From Candidatus Sulfotelmatobacter sp. (GTDB lineage Bacteria; Acidobacteriota; Terriglobia; Terriglobales; Acidobacteriaceae), in assembly GCA_036500765.1 (NCBI GenBank), contig DASYBM010000017.1:1-64000 (forward strand): a DNA stretch of 64,000 nucleotides, written 5' to 3'. A program made the position numbers and the translations under genes. Shown here piece after piece: positions 36,051 through 54,652 of the stretch. Under the pieces are notes generated by a model. That model made no database searches. It was not told the DNA's origin and saw only the letters and a list, made by a program, of their open reading frames with translations. How positions within the stretch are numbered: the stretch's first letter is position 1; each line of letters opens with the position of its first letter.

Positions 36051-36965
36051 TCACTTGCTCCTCTGCCATTCCCGGTAAGCCTCGCTCTTCGAAACTCCCC
36101 GCTCCTTCGCCACTTTTTTCAGCGCCGCCTTCTCATCGACTTTCTCTTCCGCCATGATCTGCTCCACCCGCTGCCGCACCGACGGACGGACCCTTCGACT
36201 TTGCTCAGGGCAAGCTGCGTCCGTCCCTACGCGAGCCACTTCTTCTTCGGCTTTGCCGATCAGCAGCGTGATCTCGCCTTTCACCGCTGCGCGCGCCTTC
36301 AAGTTTTCCAGCACTTCACCCGCGAATCCGCGTAGAAACTCTTCATGCAGCTTGGTCACCTCGCGCGCGATCACCACCTGCCGGGCGTTTCCCATCACTT
36401 CGCAAATATCTTCCAAAGTCTCGACCACCCGGTGCGGAGCCTCATAAAATACCTGCGTCCGCGGAGAATTCTTGACCGCCTCCAGCGCCGCGCGACGCTC
36501 ACCGCGCTTCGCGGGAAGAAATCCACTGAAGCGAAATGAATCCGTCGGCAAACCGCTCGCGACCAGCGCAGAGAGAAATGCTGATGCCCCCGGAATCGGC
36601 ACCACCGACACATGATGCCGAATCGCCAGCGCAATCAGCCTGTACCCGGGATCCGAGATTCCCGGCATCCCCGCATCCGTTACCAGCGCCACGCTCGCGC
36701 CCTCCTGCATATCCTTGACCAGTTCCGCCGATTTCGTCATCTCGTTATGTTCGTGGTAACTCGTCGTGCGGGTCGCGATCGCGTAATGATTGAGCAGCTT
36801 CTGCGTCTGCCGCGTGTCCTCGCAGGCAATCACGTCGACTTCTTTCAGCACGCGCAGCGCGCGCAGCGTGATGTCCTCCAGATTCCCGATCGGCGTCCCC
36901 ACCACATAAAGCGCCGGCCCGGAAGACTTCAGGGTCGCGCGGATTTCTGCGTCAGCGTCGTTCAT
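36051..36965 (-). CDS. rsmI: 16S rRNA (cytidine-1402 2'-O)-methyltransferase
   Basis: RsmI methylates the ribose of C1402 in 16S rRNA. From the likely start at 36965 (MNDADAEIRATLKSSG) it has 304 residues; an ATG eight codons upstream is possible. Family motifs are ALYVVGTPIGNLEDIT, VIACEDTRQTQKLL, ALVTDAGMPGISDPG and FEAPHRVVETL-type segments, as in tetrapyrrole-methylase-like folds. Near the C-terminus, between VARVGTDA and RPSVRQRV, lies the peptide ACPEQSRRV, encoded by a dispersed repeat element (36191-36215). It is absent from usual RsmI and sits outside the conserved core. Confidence 0.93.
   Translation of the reverse strand: MNDADAEIRATLKSSGPALYVVGTPIGNLEDITLRALRVLKEVDVIACEDTRQTQKLLNHYAIATRTTSYHEHNEMTKSAELVKDMQEGASVALVTDAGMPGISDPGYRLIALAIRHHVSVVPIPGASAFLSALVASGLPTDSFRFSGFLPAKRGERRAALEAVKNSPRTQVFYEAPHRVVETLEDICEVMGNARQVVIAREVTKLHEEFLRGFAGEVLENLKARAAVKGEITLLIGKAEEEVARVGTDAACPEQSRRVRPSVRQRVEQIMAEEKVDEKAALKKVAKERGVSKSEAYREWQRSK
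36191..36215. repeat. CTTCG...GCTCAGGGCA element inside rsmI
   Basis: CCCTTCGACTTTGCTCAGGG followed by CAAGC; on the coding strand it encodes ACPEQSRRV in frame. It shares its core with the elements at 906, 53084 and 55692. Confidence 0.85.
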
Positions 36966-48946: not shown

Positions 48947-50059
48947 TCAGCCCAGCAACCTGGCGGCGTCCTTGGCGTAGTAGGTCAGGATGATGCTGGC
49001 GCCTGCGCGGCGGATGCTTAGGAGGCTCTCCATCATGACGCGGTCGTGGTCGATCCAGCCATTTTGGGCGGCGGCTTCCATCATGGCGTATTCGCCGGAG
49101 ACTTGATAGGCGGCGAGCGGCAGGTCGAAGCGCTGGCGGGCGGCGGCGATCACGTCGAGGTATGGCAGGGCGGGCTTGACCATGATCATGTCGGCGCCTT
49201 CTTCGATGTCGGCTGCGATTTCGCGCAGGGCCTCGCGGAGGTTGGCCCCGTCCATCTGATACGACCGGCGGTCGCCGAATTGAGGGGCGGAGTCGGCGGC
49301 TTCGCGGAAGGGGCCGTAGTATCCGGAGGCGAATTTGGCGGCGTAGGAAAGAATGGGCGTGTTGGTGAAATCGGCTTCGTCAAGGGCGCGGCGGATGGCG
49401 GCGACGCGGCCGTCCATCATGTCGGAGGGAGCGATGATGTCGATGCCGGCTCTGGCCAGGGAGACGGAAGTGCGGGCCAGGAGTTCGAGTGTGGCGTCGT
49501 TGAGGATTTCGAACGTCGCTTCAGAGGCTCGGATGGCGACGGCGGCCAGCGCTTCGATAGCTCTTTCTTTTTCGTCACCGTTTTTTACTGCGACCGCGCG
49601 CACTGAGTTCGTTGCGTCGCGCGCGGCCGCGCCCAGAGACTGCGGCGTCAGGGCGGCCTTCACGATTCCACAATGGCCGTGCGACATGTATTCGCAGAGG
49701 CAGACGTCGCCTATCAAGAGCAGGCCGGGGACTTCGCGTTTCATGGCGCGGGCAGCTTGCTGCACAATTCCATCGTCGGACCAGGCGCCGGTGGCGACGT
49801 CGTCTTTTTTGTCGGGCAGGCCGAATAAAATCACGGCGGGCACGCCGAGGGAGTAGACTTCCTGCGCTTCTTTCACCGCTTCGTCCACCGACAGATTGAA
49901 TACGCCGGGCATGGAGCGGACTTCTTTGCGGATACCTTCTCCGGGACAAACGAACATGGGATAAACCAAAGCATCGGGAGTTAAGCGAGTCTCCGAGACC
50001 AGGTTGCGCAGTTGGGCAGTGCGGCGGAGGCGGCGAAGGCGGGTTACGGGGAATGCCAT
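48947..50059 (-). CDS. hemB: Porphobilinogen synthase (delta-aminolevulinic acid dehydratase)
   Basis: HemB condenses two 5-aminolevulinates in haem synthesis. The start at 50059 ([20 protein letters not shown]) gives 370 residues, against about 325-340 in most bacteria. Zinc-site cysteines appear in [12 protein letters not shown], and the two Schiff-base lysines in [14 protein letters not shown] and [13 protein letters not shown]. Between HGHCGI and NDATLELLA lies an insertion of about 45 residues ([20 protein letters not shown] region), where other HemB proteins have a short loop. The catalytic residues on both sides are intact. Confidence 0.95.
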
Positions 50060-50283
50060 TGGATGATCACCAAGGGAAAGCTGGAAGTGCTTCCTGATTG
50101 ATTCTAAGATCAAACTGGCCGCTCTGTCTCGCCAAAGGGACGGCGGTGGTGTCGTAATTTGAATTAGGACAGTACCGGACGGCGACAGAAGGACGAAGCA
50201 GCCAGCCCGGGGTGACCAAAGTAATTGGAAGCGTTCCCATCGGTCCTCGGATTCCCGGATCGAAGCTCATAGAATGGGGACGG

Positions 50284-52038
50284 ATGAGTCTGTTCCAACG
50301 TTACCGTTGGTTTGCCGGAGCGATCGGAGTCACTCTGATCTTTGCGGCGGTGTGCCTGACCGGGCACAAGAGCGCTGGACTGACCGCCTTCGCCGATATC
50401 ACAGGTCTGGTGTTGATGGCGGCGGTCGCGGGAATCACGCTAGCGAACACATTTTGGCGGCCGGCCCAGGAGCGCAGTTTCTGGGCGTTGCTGTCGCTGG
50501 GGTTCTCGCTTTGGGCGGCCAACTGGGCCGCCTGGGCTTGGTTAGAGGTTGGACTGCATCGAGAAATCCCCGATCCGTTCGTCTTCGATATCGTTTTGTT
50601 TTTTCATGTGGTGCCGGTGTTCGCGGCGGTGGCATGGCGTCCCGATCTGAAGAACAATAAAGAGGGAAAAGTCCTGCTTAGCCTGCTGAATTTCCTGATG
50701 CTGGTGGGCTGGTGGCTGTTTCTTTACGCCTTCATCGTCTTCCCTCATCAATATGTGTCTATAGAGAAAGCCACGTACAACAGCTATTACGACGCGCTCT
50801 ATGGCGTCGAAAATGTTCTTCTCGCCGGAGTTCTGTGCCTGGCCGCATGGACCAGTTCGGGGGGGTGGCGGCGGTTCTACCTGCATTTTCTCGGCGTGTT
50901 CGTTGTGTACTCGATCGATGCGCAATTTGTCGACCAGGCGACGGCGAACAACTCCTACTATTCGGGAAGCCTGTATGACATCCCTCTGATCGGAACGGTG
51001 GCATGGACAGCGGCGGCGGCTTTGTCGGCCCGCGAATGGAACCTTGAAAGCGTCGAGTCTCGGTTTAGTCCGCGCTGGAAAAGTGCAGTGCCGCGGCTCG
51101 CTACGATGGCGCTGCTGTCGCTGCCGGTCCTGGGAATCTGGACGATATTGCTGGACAATTCAGCCGGGCCTTCCCGGGCATTCCGCGTTTTTACTGTGCT
51201 GGGTGCGATGTTGTTGCTGGGAACATTTGTATTCCTGCGCCAATATCTACAGGACCGTGCATTGGTCGCGGTGCTACAGGAGTCGCGCCGGGGATACGAA
51301 AGCCAGAAGCGTCTGCAAACCCAATTAGTCCAGAAAGAGAAGCTGGCGACGCTGGGAAATCTGGTGGCGGGAGCGGCCAACGAGATTAATCATCCTCTCG
51401 ACTCCATCATGAATTATTCGGAACAACTCTGGGGGAAGGAGGGTCTGACGGAGGAGCAGAACCAATTGGTGCGCAAGATTGTGAACCAGGCCCGGCGGAC
51501 TCGCGATCTGGTTTCGGACCTGCTGCGATTTGCCCAGCAGTCGCCCGGAGAAAAAATTCTGGTCGACCTCAGCGTGCTGCTGCACCGCGCCACCCAAATG
51601 CTGGAATTGCGGCATCCTGGCGGTAAAATTCGTATCACGGTTTCAGTTGCGCCGGATGTACCGCGTGTGCAGGGCAATGCCAACCAATTGTTCCAGGCCT
51701 TCGTTGAGATCATTGACAACGCGATGGACGCTCTCGAAGAGGCTGGCGGGGGCGCTCTGGACATCACGGCCCAACGCCAGGGAAAAGACGTCATGCTGCA
51801 ATTTTCCGATACCGGACCGGGAATCCGCGAGCCACTGCGAGTCTTCGATCCGTTTTACACGACCAAGCCTGTCGGCAAGGGCACGGGTCTGGGTTTAAGC
51901 GCGGTATACGGCGTGATCCATGAACACAATGGGCAAATCACCTGCCTGAACAAACCGCAAGGCGGAGCCGTGTTCGCAGTAAGGATCCCCTTGGCCATTG
52001 AATCGGTGGCGCAGGTTGCCGGTGCCGGCGGCGATTGA
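50284..52038 (+). CDS. Membrane sensor histidine kinase with altered H-box
   Basis: The 584-residue protein has about eight membrane spans in residues 1-310, a coiled-coil linker and a HisKA/HATPase core. The kinase ATP-binding motifs are intact: EIIDNAMDAL (N box), DTGPGI (G1) and GKGTGLGLSAVYGVI (G2). In the H box, where HEINNPL is expected, the sequence is ANEINHPLDSIMNY, with Asn366 in place of the phospho-accepting His and a His four residues later (370). ATG 50284 (MSLFQRYRW) is preferred over 50212 because the earlier part lacks a membrane-protein character. No response regulator lies beside it. Confidence 0.88.
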   Translation: MSLFQRYRWFAGAIGVTLIFAAVCLTGHKSAGLTAFADITGLVLMAAVAGITLANTFWRPAQERSFWALLSLGFSLWAANWAAWAWLEVGLHREIPDPFVFDIVLFFHVVPVFAAVAWRPDLKNNKEGKVLLSLLNFLMLVGWWLFLYAFIVFPHQYVSIEKATYNSYYDALYGVENVLLAGVLCLAAWTSSGGWRRFYLHFLGVFVVYSIDAQFVDQATANNSYYSGSLYDIPLIGTVAWTAAAALSAREWNLESVESRFSPRWKSAVPRLATMALLSLPVLGIWTILLDNSAGPSRAFRVFTVLGAMLLLGTFVFLRQYLQDRALVAVLQESRRGYESQKRLQTQLVQKEKLATLGNLVAGAANEINHPLDSIMNYSEQLWGKEGLTEEQNQLVRKIVNQARRTRDLVSDLLRFAQQSPGEKILVDLSVLLHRATQMLELRHPGGKIRITVSVAPDVPRVQGNANQLFQAFVEIIDNAMDALEEAGGGALDITAQRQGKDVMLQFSDTGPGIREPLRVFDPFYTTKPVGKGTGLGLSAVYGVIHEHNGQITCLNKPQGGAVFAVRIPLAIESVAQVAGAGGD

Positions 52039-52132: not shown

Positions 52133-54652
52133 ATGGCTGGCGAACTGATTCACAATTCCGCGCGGGTGCTGGAGTTCGACGCTTTGCGCGAACTGCTGCG
52201 GGGATACGCCTCTTCGCCTCTAGGCCAGGAGCGTATTGCGGCGCTGCTTCCCTCGACCGATCGCGACTGGATTGAGAGCCAACAAGCGCTGGCCCAGGAA
52301 ATCCGGGAGTTTCGTCGCGTAGGCGGAAGGTTCGATTTTTCCGGCTTGCTGGAGATTGGTCAGTTGGTCGAGAAGGCGCGCATTGTGGGCGTGGCGCTTG
52401 AGACCACGGAGATTCGCGACGTGATCCTGGTGGTCGATCGGGCGGCGGAGTGGCGTGAGATTGCGTTGCATCCTCCGGCGAATATGCGAACGGATTGGCA
52501 GTGGGTGCGGCCGCTCTCGGACCAAATTTCGGACTTCACCGAGTTCCTGCGCGGCTTCCGCAACAAGATTCAGCCCGACGGCACGCTGGAGGATAAGGCA
52601 TCTCCGGAGTTGGGGCGCATTCGACGTGAGATTGAAAAGCAGCGGCGATCGATTCAAGAGTCATTGCGCGGATATCTGCGGCGGCTGGCCGAGGGCGGCG
52701 CCGTGCAGGAGGAGCTCGTCACGATCCGCGGCGAACGCTTCGTAATTCCGGTAAAGGTTGAGCAGAAGCGGCGCGTGCAGGGCGTGGTGCATGGCGCGAG
52801 TTCGAGCGGCCAGACGGTGTTCGTGGAACCGCTGGAGACGATCGAACAGAACAACGAACTGGTGCGGTTGCTGGAAGAGGAGACGGCGGAGATTCATCGC
52901 ATCTTGCTCGAAATGACGCAGCGCATCGGGGCCCATGCTGTCGACATTCGAACTGCCGTAGATGTGCTGAGAGAATTGGAGCTACAGTTCGCCAAAGCGC
53001 GGTTTGCGGAAGAATACAACTGCGTGCAGGCGAAGTTGAGTGAGACTCAACCAGAGCCACGTGGCGAAGGACGCATTCATGAGCCTGTCCTGAGCGAAGT
53101 CGAAGGGTCAGCGAGCGCAGCGAGTCTGGTGTTGGACAATGCCCGCCATACTCTTCTGGAGCGTAATCTAAAGCTCAAGGGCGTCCCAGTCGTCCCCGTC
53201 AGCGTGGAACTGGAAGGCAAACGGCGCCAACTCATCATCACAGGCCCGAACACCGGCGGCAAGACGGTCACCCTAAAGACTGTCGGCCTTCTGGCTCTGA
53301 TGGCGCAGGCGGGGCTGCCGGTTCCCGCGGATCGGGCGGAGCTTCCCGTATTCGATGCTGTGCTCGCCGACATCGGCGACTACCAGTCAATCGAACAGAA
53401 TCTCTCGACCTTTTCGGCGCACGTCACAAATATCGATTTCATCTCGCGTACCGCGACGGCGCATTCGCTGGTGCTGCTGGACGAACTGGGTTCTGCGACC
53501 GATCCCGAAGAGGGTGCTGCCCTGGCGGTGGCCATTGCTGGACACTTTGGAATGATCGGATGCATGACTGTGATCTCGACTCATCACACCTCGCTCAAGG
53601 TCTACGCCGCGAATACGCCGGGCGTGGTGAACGCTTCGGTGGGCTTTGATGAGGCGACGTTGCAGCCGACTTACGAATTGAAAGTCGGGGTGCCGGGAGC
53701 GTCGGCGGGCATTAACATCGCGCGGCGCCTGGGATTGAATCCGGAGATCATCGACAGCGCGCGGGCGAAGTTGGGAACGCAGGCGCGCGATGTTGGAAAA
53801 TTCCTCGACAAGCTGCATGCCGATCTGCGCGAGGCTGAAAACGAACGGCTGCGCCTCAAAGCAGGCCAGCAAGATCTTGAAGAAGAAAAGAAACGTCTAA
53901 CGGTTTTCGGAAAAAACGAACAGCAGGCCAAAGTTCGCGAGATGGAGAAAAAGCTGGAAAGCCTGCTGCGCGATTTCGAATATCATGCGCGCGAGGCGGT
54001 CAGCGCCGTGCAGGATCGCGCTGCCGCGCAGAAGGTGTCGAAAGAGGCGGAACGCCGCATCGCCAAGTTGCGGCGCGAGTTCCGCGACCAGTTTGACTCG
54101 ACCGTAGTCGCACACTCCACGGGCGCTGACCGGAACGATCCGCACGCGCAGCCGCAGATCGTGAAGCACGTTGCCGAGGGGGACACGGTGAAACTGAAGT
54201 CGACCGGACGCGGCGCACGCGTGGTACGCAAGCTGGACGACCATCATTACGAAGTCGAGATGGGCGCGATGAAGATGAAAATTGCGCGCGACGACATTGC
54301 AGAAGTGCTGGCAAGTGCGCAGGGTCAGGACCCAGGCGGACAGACTCCGGTGAAAGCGGCGCGCTCTCGGGGGATTTCCGTGTCGCTCGAAAACGAAAGC
54401 GCGAATGTGCCCACGGAGATCAACGTGATCGGGCGGACGGTCGACGATGCATCGCGCGAAGTCGAAAAGTTCGTGGACCGCGCATTTCTAGCAGGACTGG
54501 CCCGGGTGCGGGTTGTACACGGCAGCGGCATGGGCATCCTGCGCAAAGCGCTTCGTCAGTTGCTTCAGCAGCATCCGCATGTGGAATCCGTGGTTGAGCC
54601 TCCGCAGAACCAGGGCGGGGGCGGGGCGACGGTGGTGGAGTTGAGGGTATGA
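52133..54652 (+). CDS. mutS2: MutS2-family ATPase with Smr domain
   Basis: The start at 52133 (MAGELIHNSARVLEFDALRE) gives 839 residues. MutS2 has no mismatch-recognition domain. It acts in recombination control and, in some bacteria, splits collided ribosomes. The ATPase has the Walker A GPNTGGKTVTLKTVG, Walker B LVLLDELGSATDPEEGAAL and the STHHTSLK switch. A coiled coil follows, and the C-terminal Smr nuclease-type domain has VHGSGMGILRKALRQ. An in-frame repeat element at 53084-53109 adds the peptide EPVLSEVEGSAS between the helical core and the ATPase. Confidence 0.95.
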   Translation: MAGELIHNSARVLEFDALRELLRGYASSPLGQERIAALLPSTDRDWIESQQALAQEIREFRRVGGRFDFSGLLEIGQLVEKARIVGVALETTEIRDVILVVDRAAEWREIALHPPANMRTDWQWVRPLSDQISDFTEFLRGFRNKIQPDGTLEDKASPELGRIRREIEKQRRSIQESLRGYLRRLAEGGAVQEELVTIRGERFVIPVKVEQKRRVQGVVHGASSSGQTVFVEPLETIEQNNELVRLLEEETAEIHRILLEMTQRIGAHAVDIRTAVDVLRELELQFAKARFAEEYNCVQAKLSETQPEPRGEGRIHEPVLSEVEGSASAASLVLDNARHTLLERNLKLKGVPVVPVSVELEGKRRQLIITGPNTGGKTVTLKTVGLLALMAQAGLPVPADRAELPVFDAVLADIGDYQSIEQNLSTFSAHVTNIDFISRTATAHSLVLLDELGSATDPEEGAALAVAIAGHFGMIGCMTVISTHHTSLKVYAANTPGVVNASVGFDEATLQPTYELKVGVPGASAGINIARRLGLNPEIIDSARAKLGTQARDVGKFLDKLHADLREAENERLRLKAGQQDLEEEKKRLTVFGKNEQQAKVREMEKKLESLLRDFEYHAREAVSAVQDRAAAQKVSKEAERRIAKLRREFRDQFDSTVVAHSTGADRNDPHAQPQIVKHVAEGDTVKLKSTGRGARVVRKLDDHHYEVEMGAMKMKIARDDIAEVLASAQGQDPGGQTPVKAARSRGISVSLENESANVPTEINVIGRTVDDASREVEKFVDRAFLAGLARVRVVHGSGMGILRKALRQLLQQHPHVESVVEPPQNQGGGGATVVELRV
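53084..53109. repeat. CCTGAGCGAAG element inside mutS2
   Basis: CCTGTCCTGAGCGAAGTCGA followed by AGGGTC encodes PVLSEVEGS in frame. It is the reverse orientation of the elements at 36191 and 55692. Confidence 0.85.

What the first reader, a model, noticed from the sequence alone, without database searches (positions are those of the whole stretch)
50284..52038. Histidine kinase whose phospho-accepting His is replaced and shifted by one helix turn
The H box reads ANEINHPL: Asn366 at the normal His position, and His370 four residues on. ATP-binding boxes are intact. Either the His at 370 is used, which would be a new geometry, or the protein is a pseudokinase that binds ATP for signalling.
Basis: seen in the sequence. 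Interest (0 to 1): 0.52.

Follow-up and report, generated by a model that had tools for sequence, protein, structure and literature searches.

The report
Catalytic half of a split kinase
This soil bacterium's sensor kinase has lost the amino acid it would normally phosphorylate but kept its ATP-binding part, while a sister protein elsewhere in the genome has kept the amino acid and lost the ATP-binding part, so the two probably work only as a mixed pair.

Summary
In detail: the phospho-accepting His of the HisKA kinase at 50284-52038 is Asn366, His370 lies four residues on, and the ATP-binding boxes are intact. The "shifted His" reading is not supported: His370 also occurs in orthologues that keep the normal His, is absent from others, and sits where HisKA kinases carry their phosphatase Asn/Thr. 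Among 35 orthologues of the genus, residue 366 is His 21, Gln 7, Asn 4, Arg 2, Lys 1, while the ATP boxes are conserved. A full-length paralogue (B, beside rlmN) shows the reverse: all 42 genus sequences read keep the H box, and none keeps the G1 ATP motif. The same reciprocal pattern is seen in a second genus (12 of 12 genomes with matches), and in a third, more distant genus six genomes carry it as adjacent genes, one with the ATPase and a broken H box, one with the H box and no ATPase domain. Best explanation: a split, heterodimeric histidine kinase in which the window protein phosphorylates B's His in trans. The complementarity is shown from sequence; heterodimer and phosphotransfer are inferred. 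Split kinases are known (CheA3/CheA4); my searches found no HisKA pair made by reciprocal decay.

The parts
50284..52038 (+). protein A: membrane HisKA histidine kinase without phospho-accepting His (584 aa)
   Evidence: orthologues at E<=1e-112 in 35 of 45 genus genomes, own included
50284..51270 (+). N-terminal multi-helix membrane domain (aa 1-329), no Pfam match; shared with paralogue B and with a GGDEF paralogue
51238..51381 (+). stretch from Arg319 to residue 366, exactly 48 residues in every A, B and tandem-pair protein measured
51337..51543 (+). DHp (HisKA) domain, aa 352-420
51379..51381 (+). Asn366 in place of the phospho-accepting His
51382..51384 (+). Glu367, kept in A even where His is lost
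   Evidence: 33 E + 2 D of 35
51391..51393 (+). His370, at the position of the phosphatase Thr/Asn
51670..52008 (+). intact CA (HATPase_c) domain: N479, G1 509-513, F 521-528, G2 533-538
48947..50113 (-). hemB open frame, divergent neighbour that marks the A locus
52133..54652 (+). mutS2, downstream neighbour that marks the A locus

Best explanation
The window protein (A) is the ATP-binding, catalytic half of a split histidine kinase. It forms a heterodimer, through the shared membrane domain, equal-length linker and DHp helices, with paralogue B (own genome G000:C16:279037-280794), which has the intact His, Glu and phosphatase Asn but no working ATP site. A's CA domain phosphorylates B's His in trans, and B then passes the phosphoryl group to, or removes it from, an unidentified response regulator. 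After an ancestral duplication B lost its ATP site and became dependent on A; A's own His then became dispensable and was lost repeatedly. Shown from sequence: reciprocal loss, conservation of the complementary halves, synteny, equal linker length. Inferred: heterodimer, trans-phosphorylation, response regulator, order of losses.
For: A in the genus: ATP-box residues kept (Asn479 35 of 35; the G1, F and G2 residues tested 34 or 35 of 35, the miss being a frameshifted draft), His366 kept in only 21 of 35. B in the genus: His, Glu+1, Asn+3, Asn+4 in 41 of 41 aligned; none of the 41 has the N-box Asn plus G1 D-G-G set; a 42nd (L319) keeps its H box and has no G1 motif. Pairwise identity of the G1-F-G2 stretch is 0.81 in A and 0.36 in B; of the H-box helix 0.74 and 0.85. 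Second genus g33: among 12 genomes with matches, A has Ser/Gly for His in 12 (one from a gene split over two contigs) and B keeps His and has lost G1 in 12. A third case in family f7, genus g12: six tandem pairs, gene 1 with CA and a broken H box, gene 2 with an intact H box and no CA; Pfam agrees for the two pairs scanned. His loss in A (25 of 65 rows, at least 9 changes) is seen only where the B copy, when found, has lost the N/G1 set (22 of 22, plus G065 and G493 and G445); in the other genera read, where both copies exist and B keeps N/G1, A keeps His in 11 of 11. Linker length 48 in every protein measured. CA of A under purifying selection (dN/dS 0.06-0.13 over 8 chosen pairs, rough, several dS near or above 1). 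Among the 30 own-genome HisKA proteins read, A alone lacks His and B alone lacks a G1 motif.
Against: No interaction or phosphorylation data. A and B lie at unlinked loci in the window's family. 21 of 35 genus A proteins keep His, so A may also act alone there. Two genomes (G386, G389) combine an A with His and a B without N/G1 set. Relatives with Arg at the His position and intact CA exist where no partner paralogue was found (G167, G265, at E<=1e-45); two more (G223, G171) were not searched for partners. Glu367, needed for kinase activity on its own helix in CrdS, stays conserved in A without His, which the model does not explain. The best B tree has three ATP-site losses, but a single loss is not rejected (p-AU 0.15), so the association rests on few independent events. 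One His-less A genome (G020, 84% complete) has no B found. The AlphaFold DHp regions are of low confidence.
Confidence: 0.64

Rival explanations
1. A is an allosteric pseudokinase of the DivL kind: it binds ATP or a regulator and controls another kinase or response regulator without any phosphoryl transfer.
For: No phospho-acceptor at 366 in 14 of 35 genus orthologues; DivL (4q20) is among the solved structures matched by sequence and by fold; Arg-for-His relatives without a visible partner paralogue.
Against: The ATP boxes, including F and G2, are kept; for DivL the ATPase domain is said to be unnecessary (passage in PMC9491836). It does not explain why B loses its ATP site in the same genomes, nor the tandem pairs.
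Confidence: 0.17
2. B is a histidine phosphotransferase (Spo0B, ChpT or PhyT kind) or a RetS-like phosphatase that works through receiver domains, and A is functionally unrelated to it.
For: B combines an intact H box HExxN with a degenerate ATP site, as RetS has HExxT with a degenerate HATPase and PhyT a DHp with a degenerated ATPase domain (PMC5992135, PMC5898713, passages); B is divergently linked to a HisKA_3 kinase and NarL-type regulator.
Against: Leaves A's repeated His loss unexplained; A and B share the whole membrane domain and the linker length; tandem pairs put the two halves side by side on one strand.
Confidence: 0.12
3. His370 is the phospho-acceptor, a shifted geometry.
For: His370 is present in the window protein and in 26 of 35 orthologues.
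Against: In 19 of those 26 it occurs together with the normal His; of the 14 genus orthologues without His366, 7 also lack His at 370; in g33 it is Tyr or Phe in 10 of 11 rows; it is the phosphatase position.
Confidence: 0.02
4. A is a kinase gene in decay.
For: Two draft genomes have a frameshift near residue 504 (G036, G386).
Against: dN/dS of the CA domain 0.06-0.13 over 8 chosen pairs, and the frame is open through CA in 34 of 35 genus orthologues.
Confidence: 0.04

Closest known systems
Split CheA kinases (CheA3/CheA4 of Rhodobacter sphaeroides; Hik36/Hik43 of Synechocystis)
   Same: ATP-binding and phospho-accepting functions on two proteins; neither CheA3 nor CheA4 autophosphorylates alone (PMC3591291, passages and discussion section); Hik36 and Hik43 interact in a two-hybrid assay (PMC7656254, passages)
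   Different: Those are CheA proteins lacking whole domains; here both are full-length membrane HisKA kinases (shorter B only in the tandem form) with reciprocal loss of active-site residues
RetS/GacS, Pseudomonas aeruginosa
   Same: One partner has a degenerate HATPase and an intact H box, and the kinases act on each other (PMC5992135, passages; PDB 7n0e among fold matches)
   Different: RetS downregulates GacS, which autophosphorylates; A here lacks the His
DivL pseudokinase
   Same: Acts without a phospho-accepting His; CA fold present (4q20)
   Different: Part of the CckA network, with Tyr at the site (Tyr recalled); A's ATP boxes are conserved and it has a reciprocal paralogue
Spo0B / ChpT / PhyT phosphotransferases (compare B)
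   Same: Phospho-accepting His on kinase-like dimerisation helices with a degenerate catalytic domain (PMC5898713, passages)
   Different: PhyT takes phosphate from a receiver protein (the same for Spo0B and ChpT is recalled); B shares its membrane domain with an ATP-competent sister
ZraS, AtoS, CckA
   Same: Nearest sequence and structure relatives of the DHp-CA core
   Different: Complete kinases with His (recalled)

Membership tests
Canonical HisKA histidine kinase | phospho-accepting His in the H box | tested here: not met
   Asn366
Canonical HisKA histidine kinase | HATPase_c with N, G1, F, G2 boxes | tested here: met
Canonical HisKA histidine kinase | HisKA dimerisation domain | tested here: met
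   Pfam 42 bits, cut-off 26.9
Canonical HisKA histidine kinase | phosphatase Thr/Asn at +4 | tested here: not met
   His370
Split histidine kinase | catalytic and phospho-accepting residues on separate proteins of one genome | tested here: met
   A and B in G000; 22 of 22 His-less A genomes with B in hand, plus G065, G493
Split histidine kinase | neither half autophosphorylates; the mixture does | not testable with these tools
   needs biochemistry
Split CheA (CheA3/CheA4) | CheA P1-P5 domain set | tested here: not met
   Pfam finds HisKA + HATPase_c in A and HisKA only in B
DivL-type pseudokinase | no phospho-accepting His with CA fold present | tested here: met
DivL-type pseudokinase | acts by binding a response regulator and controlling a second kinase | not testable with these tools
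   none
Spo0B/ChpT/PhyT phosphotransferase (for B) | intact H box with degenerate CA | tested here: met
Spo0B/ChpT/PhyT phosphotransferase (for B) | phosphoryl group comes from a receiver domain | not testable with these tools
   none

The most novel reading that the evidence does not exclude
A natural obligate heterodimeric HisKA sensor kinase, made by complementary decay of duplicated full-length kinases, has arisen more than once in one class of Acidobacteriota. Loss of the ATP site in one copy acts as a ratchet that frees the other copy's His to be lost many times, with a tandem-gene version as an end state.
Probability: 0.57. Interest if true: 0.75.

Novelty: new variant of a known kind. 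Interest (0 to 1): 0.6.

Why it matters
Histidine kinases are usually taken to be homodimers, and paralogues are thought to be kept from mixing (general knowledge, not from a call). A kinase pair in which each copy has lost the other's essential part would be a natural case of a homodimer turned obligate heterodimer, with less degenerate relatives, two genus-level end states and a tandem-gene form available for comparison. It also warns that single-gene annotation would call A a dead kinase and B a defective one.

Tried and rejected
Shifted phospho-acceptor at His370: rejected. Decay of A: rejected on selection and conservation. Absence of A in some genus genomes as evidence against the pair: of the 10 genus genomes without a full A match, hemB, the usual neighbour of A, was not found at E<=1e-60 in 5, and in the other 5 its contig ends within or just beyond hemB on the A side; one of these (G010) has a piece of A on another contig. 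So absence of A cannot be claimed. Presence and absence of A and B across the genus was too incomplete to use as a test. A single origin of the ATP-less B proteins could not be rejected, so I do not claim three independent losses in the window's family. A response regulator partner was sought by context only: none among the hemB and mutS2 neighbours of A; a HisKA_3 kinase and NarL-type regulator lie divergently beside B and were not tested further. The scan of genome contigs gave 21 loci: 3 acidobacterial orthologues and 18 loci of other phyla matching only the kinase core at 21-30% identity, not read further. Literature searches for a comparable HisKA pair listed none that I recognised from titles and abstract openings; the library holds open-licence papers only. 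AlphaFold models were monomers, so neither the heterodimer nor the cis or trans handedness of the DHp loop was tested. Not all family-level matches were fetched and read.

Errors of mine: the mutS2 marker was translated out of frame; one search repeats it in frame and replaces it. The script stopped with an error after residue 386; the rows before that are used. In the genome table, the A of G445 and the B of G065 and G493 are listed as 'none'; they exist.

Full report
What is there. The window (G000:C17, a genome of 5.04 Mb in 17 contigs; its named relatives are MAGs labelled Acidobacteriaceae or Acidobacteria) holds at 50284-52038 a 584-residue protein with a membrane domain, a HisKA domain and a HATPase_c domain. 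The H box reads AGAANEINHPL, with Asn366 where the phospho-accepting His belongs and His370 four residues on. The ATP-binding boxes are complete. Of the 34 HisKA matches in this genome I read 30; 29 have His at the site, and the window protein is the exception.

His370 is not a moved His. Among 35 orthologues from the 45 genomes of the genus, residue 366 is His in 21, Gln in 7, Asn in 4, Arg in 2 and Lys in 1, and residue 370 is His in 26, Gln in 6 and Asn, Tyr or Glu in one each. Orthologues with AHEINHPL have both; others (AQEIDQPL) have neither. On the tree of 65 rows (63 A and 2 outgroup rows), His is lost in 25, with at least 9 changes of state; Asn versus another residue at 370 takes at least 4. 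Position +4 is the Thr/Asn position that CrdS and other HisKA kinases need for phosphatase activity, separate from kinase activity (PMC3510030, passages). So A has lost the phosphatase residue as well as, in this species, the phospho-acceptor. No other His stands in the phosphorylation position.

The paralogue. The same genome carries B at G000:C16:279037-280794, 35% identical to A over residues 4-576, beside rlmN. Pfam sees HisKA but no HATPase_c in B. B was found in 42 of 45 genus genomes. In the 41 aligned, His, Glu+1, Asn+3 and Asn+4 are present in 41 of 41, while no sequence has the full N-box Asn and G1 D-G-G set; the 42nd (L319) keeps its H box and also lacks the G1 motif. The G1-F-G2 stretch is 81% identical on average among A proteins and 36% among B proteins; the H-box helix 74% and 85%. 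dN/dS of the CA region (Nei-Gojobori, pairs chosen by me, several dS near or above 1) is 0.06-0.13 over 8 A pairs and 0.13-0.62 over 8 B pairs. AlphaFold keeps CA-like secondary structure in B with the lid region (511-528) under pLDDT 50, and a more confident CA domain in A; the DHp region is of low confidence in both.

The pattern recurs. In another genus of the same family (g33, 12 genomes with matches) A has Ser or Gly for His in 12 of 12 (one of them, G445, from a gene split over two contigs) and B keeps HEINNPL and has lost its G1 motif in 12 of 12. In the other family genomes that I fetched, 11 hold A with His and B with the N and G1 residues kept; two (G386, G389) hold A with His and B without that set; 4 show A alone, all with His; 9 show B alone, all with the N and G1 residues. 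In all 20 of those N/G1-keeping B proteins the Asp three residues after the N-box Asn is already another residue, so erosion may have begun there. Every His-less A with a B sequence in hand has a B without the N/G1 set: 22, plus G065 and G493 and G445; the remaining His-less A genome is G020 (no B found, 84% complete). In family f7, genus g12, I examined second copies at 12 further loci; six hold two adjacent genes on one strand with overlapping open frames: gene 1 with a complete CA and a broken H box (no His in 5 of 6; the sixth keeps His but has Ser-Ala for the Asn-Pro that follows), gene 2 with an intact H box and no CA domain. The other six loci are single copies. Pfam agrees for the two pairs scanned.

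How it most likely works. The reciprocal loss, the shared membrane domain and the exact 48-residue spacing from Arg319 (or its counterpart) to the phosphorylation position in 35 A, 41 B, 11 + 11 g33 and 12 tandem-pair proteins make a heterodimer the simplest reading: A's CA domain binds ATP and phosphorylates B's His in trans, and B, which also keeps the phosphatase Asn, deals with the response regulator. An order in which B lost its ATP site first and A's His became free to vary fits the data, because A keeps His in 11 of 11 genomes where B keeps N/G1, and in 21 genus genomes where B has lost them. The dimer, the reaction, the regulator and the signal are inferred, not shown.

What speaks against it. 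A and B are unlinked in this family. Many A proteins keep His. Two relatives with Arg at the site (G167, G265) have no partner paralogue at E<=1e-45, and two more Arg-for-His relatives (G223, G171) were not searched for partners. Glu367 stays Glu or Asp in all 35 genus A proteins, His or not. The number of independent ATP-site losses in B is three on the best tree but one is not rejected (p-AU 0.15). A DivL-like or RetS/PhyT-like arrangement remains possible.

Orthology. Of the 35 genus A loci, 31 have hemB and 32 have mutS2 within the flank held. Two of the three without mutS2 are cut by a contig end; the four without hemB (L010, L011, L013, L025) have a full 1,500-base flank, and L025 shows neither gene. 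The g33 A genes lie beside hemB in all seven genomes whose flanks were read (L058, L173, L174, L176, L177, L258, L281), without a mutS2 match there. In the 10 genus genomes without a full A match, hemB was not found at E<=1e-60 in 5 and its contig ends on the A side in the other 5, so A is not shown to be absent.

Known and new. Split histidine kinases are known: CheA3/CheA4 (PMC3591291, passages and discussion section; the authors also count 1556 of 42417 HisKA proteins in SMART without HATPase) and Hik36/Hik43 (PMC7656254, passages). HisKA-type kinases with degenerate ATP domains are known as inhibitors or phosphotransferases (RetS PMC5992135, PhyT PMC5898713, passages). A laboratory-evolved ChrS pseudokinase has an effect that depends on the paralogue HrrS; native ChrS and HrrS heterodimerise in a two-hybrid assay, the truncated form was not seen to (PMC9491836, passages). 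I recognised no report of a natural HisKA pair with reciprocal active-site loss in searches, which cover open-licence papers only. I therefore file it as a new variant of a known kind.

Noticed in passing
G000:C4, L084:1559-3436 (-): A third protein with the same membrane domain carries a GGDEF diguanylate cyclase domain instead of a kinase. Matches limited to the membrane domain are listed for about 32 of 37 genus genomes; only the own-genome one was checked.
   Followed up: partly
L322:10967-13472 (+); also L288, L284, L282: Divergently beside B lies a HisKA_3 kinase with a NarL-type response regulator; also present at the three other B loci with long flanks tested, the regulator 72-90% identical.
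   Followed up: partly
L269, L270, L271, L272, L277, L278: Tandem gene pairs in family f7: CA-bearing protein with broken H box plus CA-less protein with intact H box. In G207 (L270) the first gene has His one residue after the usual place.
   Followed up: partly
L065, L074, L279, L280: Arg at the phospho-acceptor position with intact CA boxes; no partner paralogue found in the two genomes searched (G167, G265).
   Followed up: partly
window 51382-51384: Glu367 next to the lost His stays Glu (33) or Asp (2) in 35 of 35 genus orthologues; unexplained.
   Followed up: no
L029 and L287: A of draft genomes G036 and G386 is frameshifted near residue 504; assembly error or pseudogene not told apart.
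   Followed up: no
window 53090-53105 (inside mutS2) and 36193-36208: A 16-base motif occurs twice with up to one mismatch where shuffles give none, once in frame inside mutS2 (VLSEVEG); possibly a dispersed repeat.
   Followed up: no
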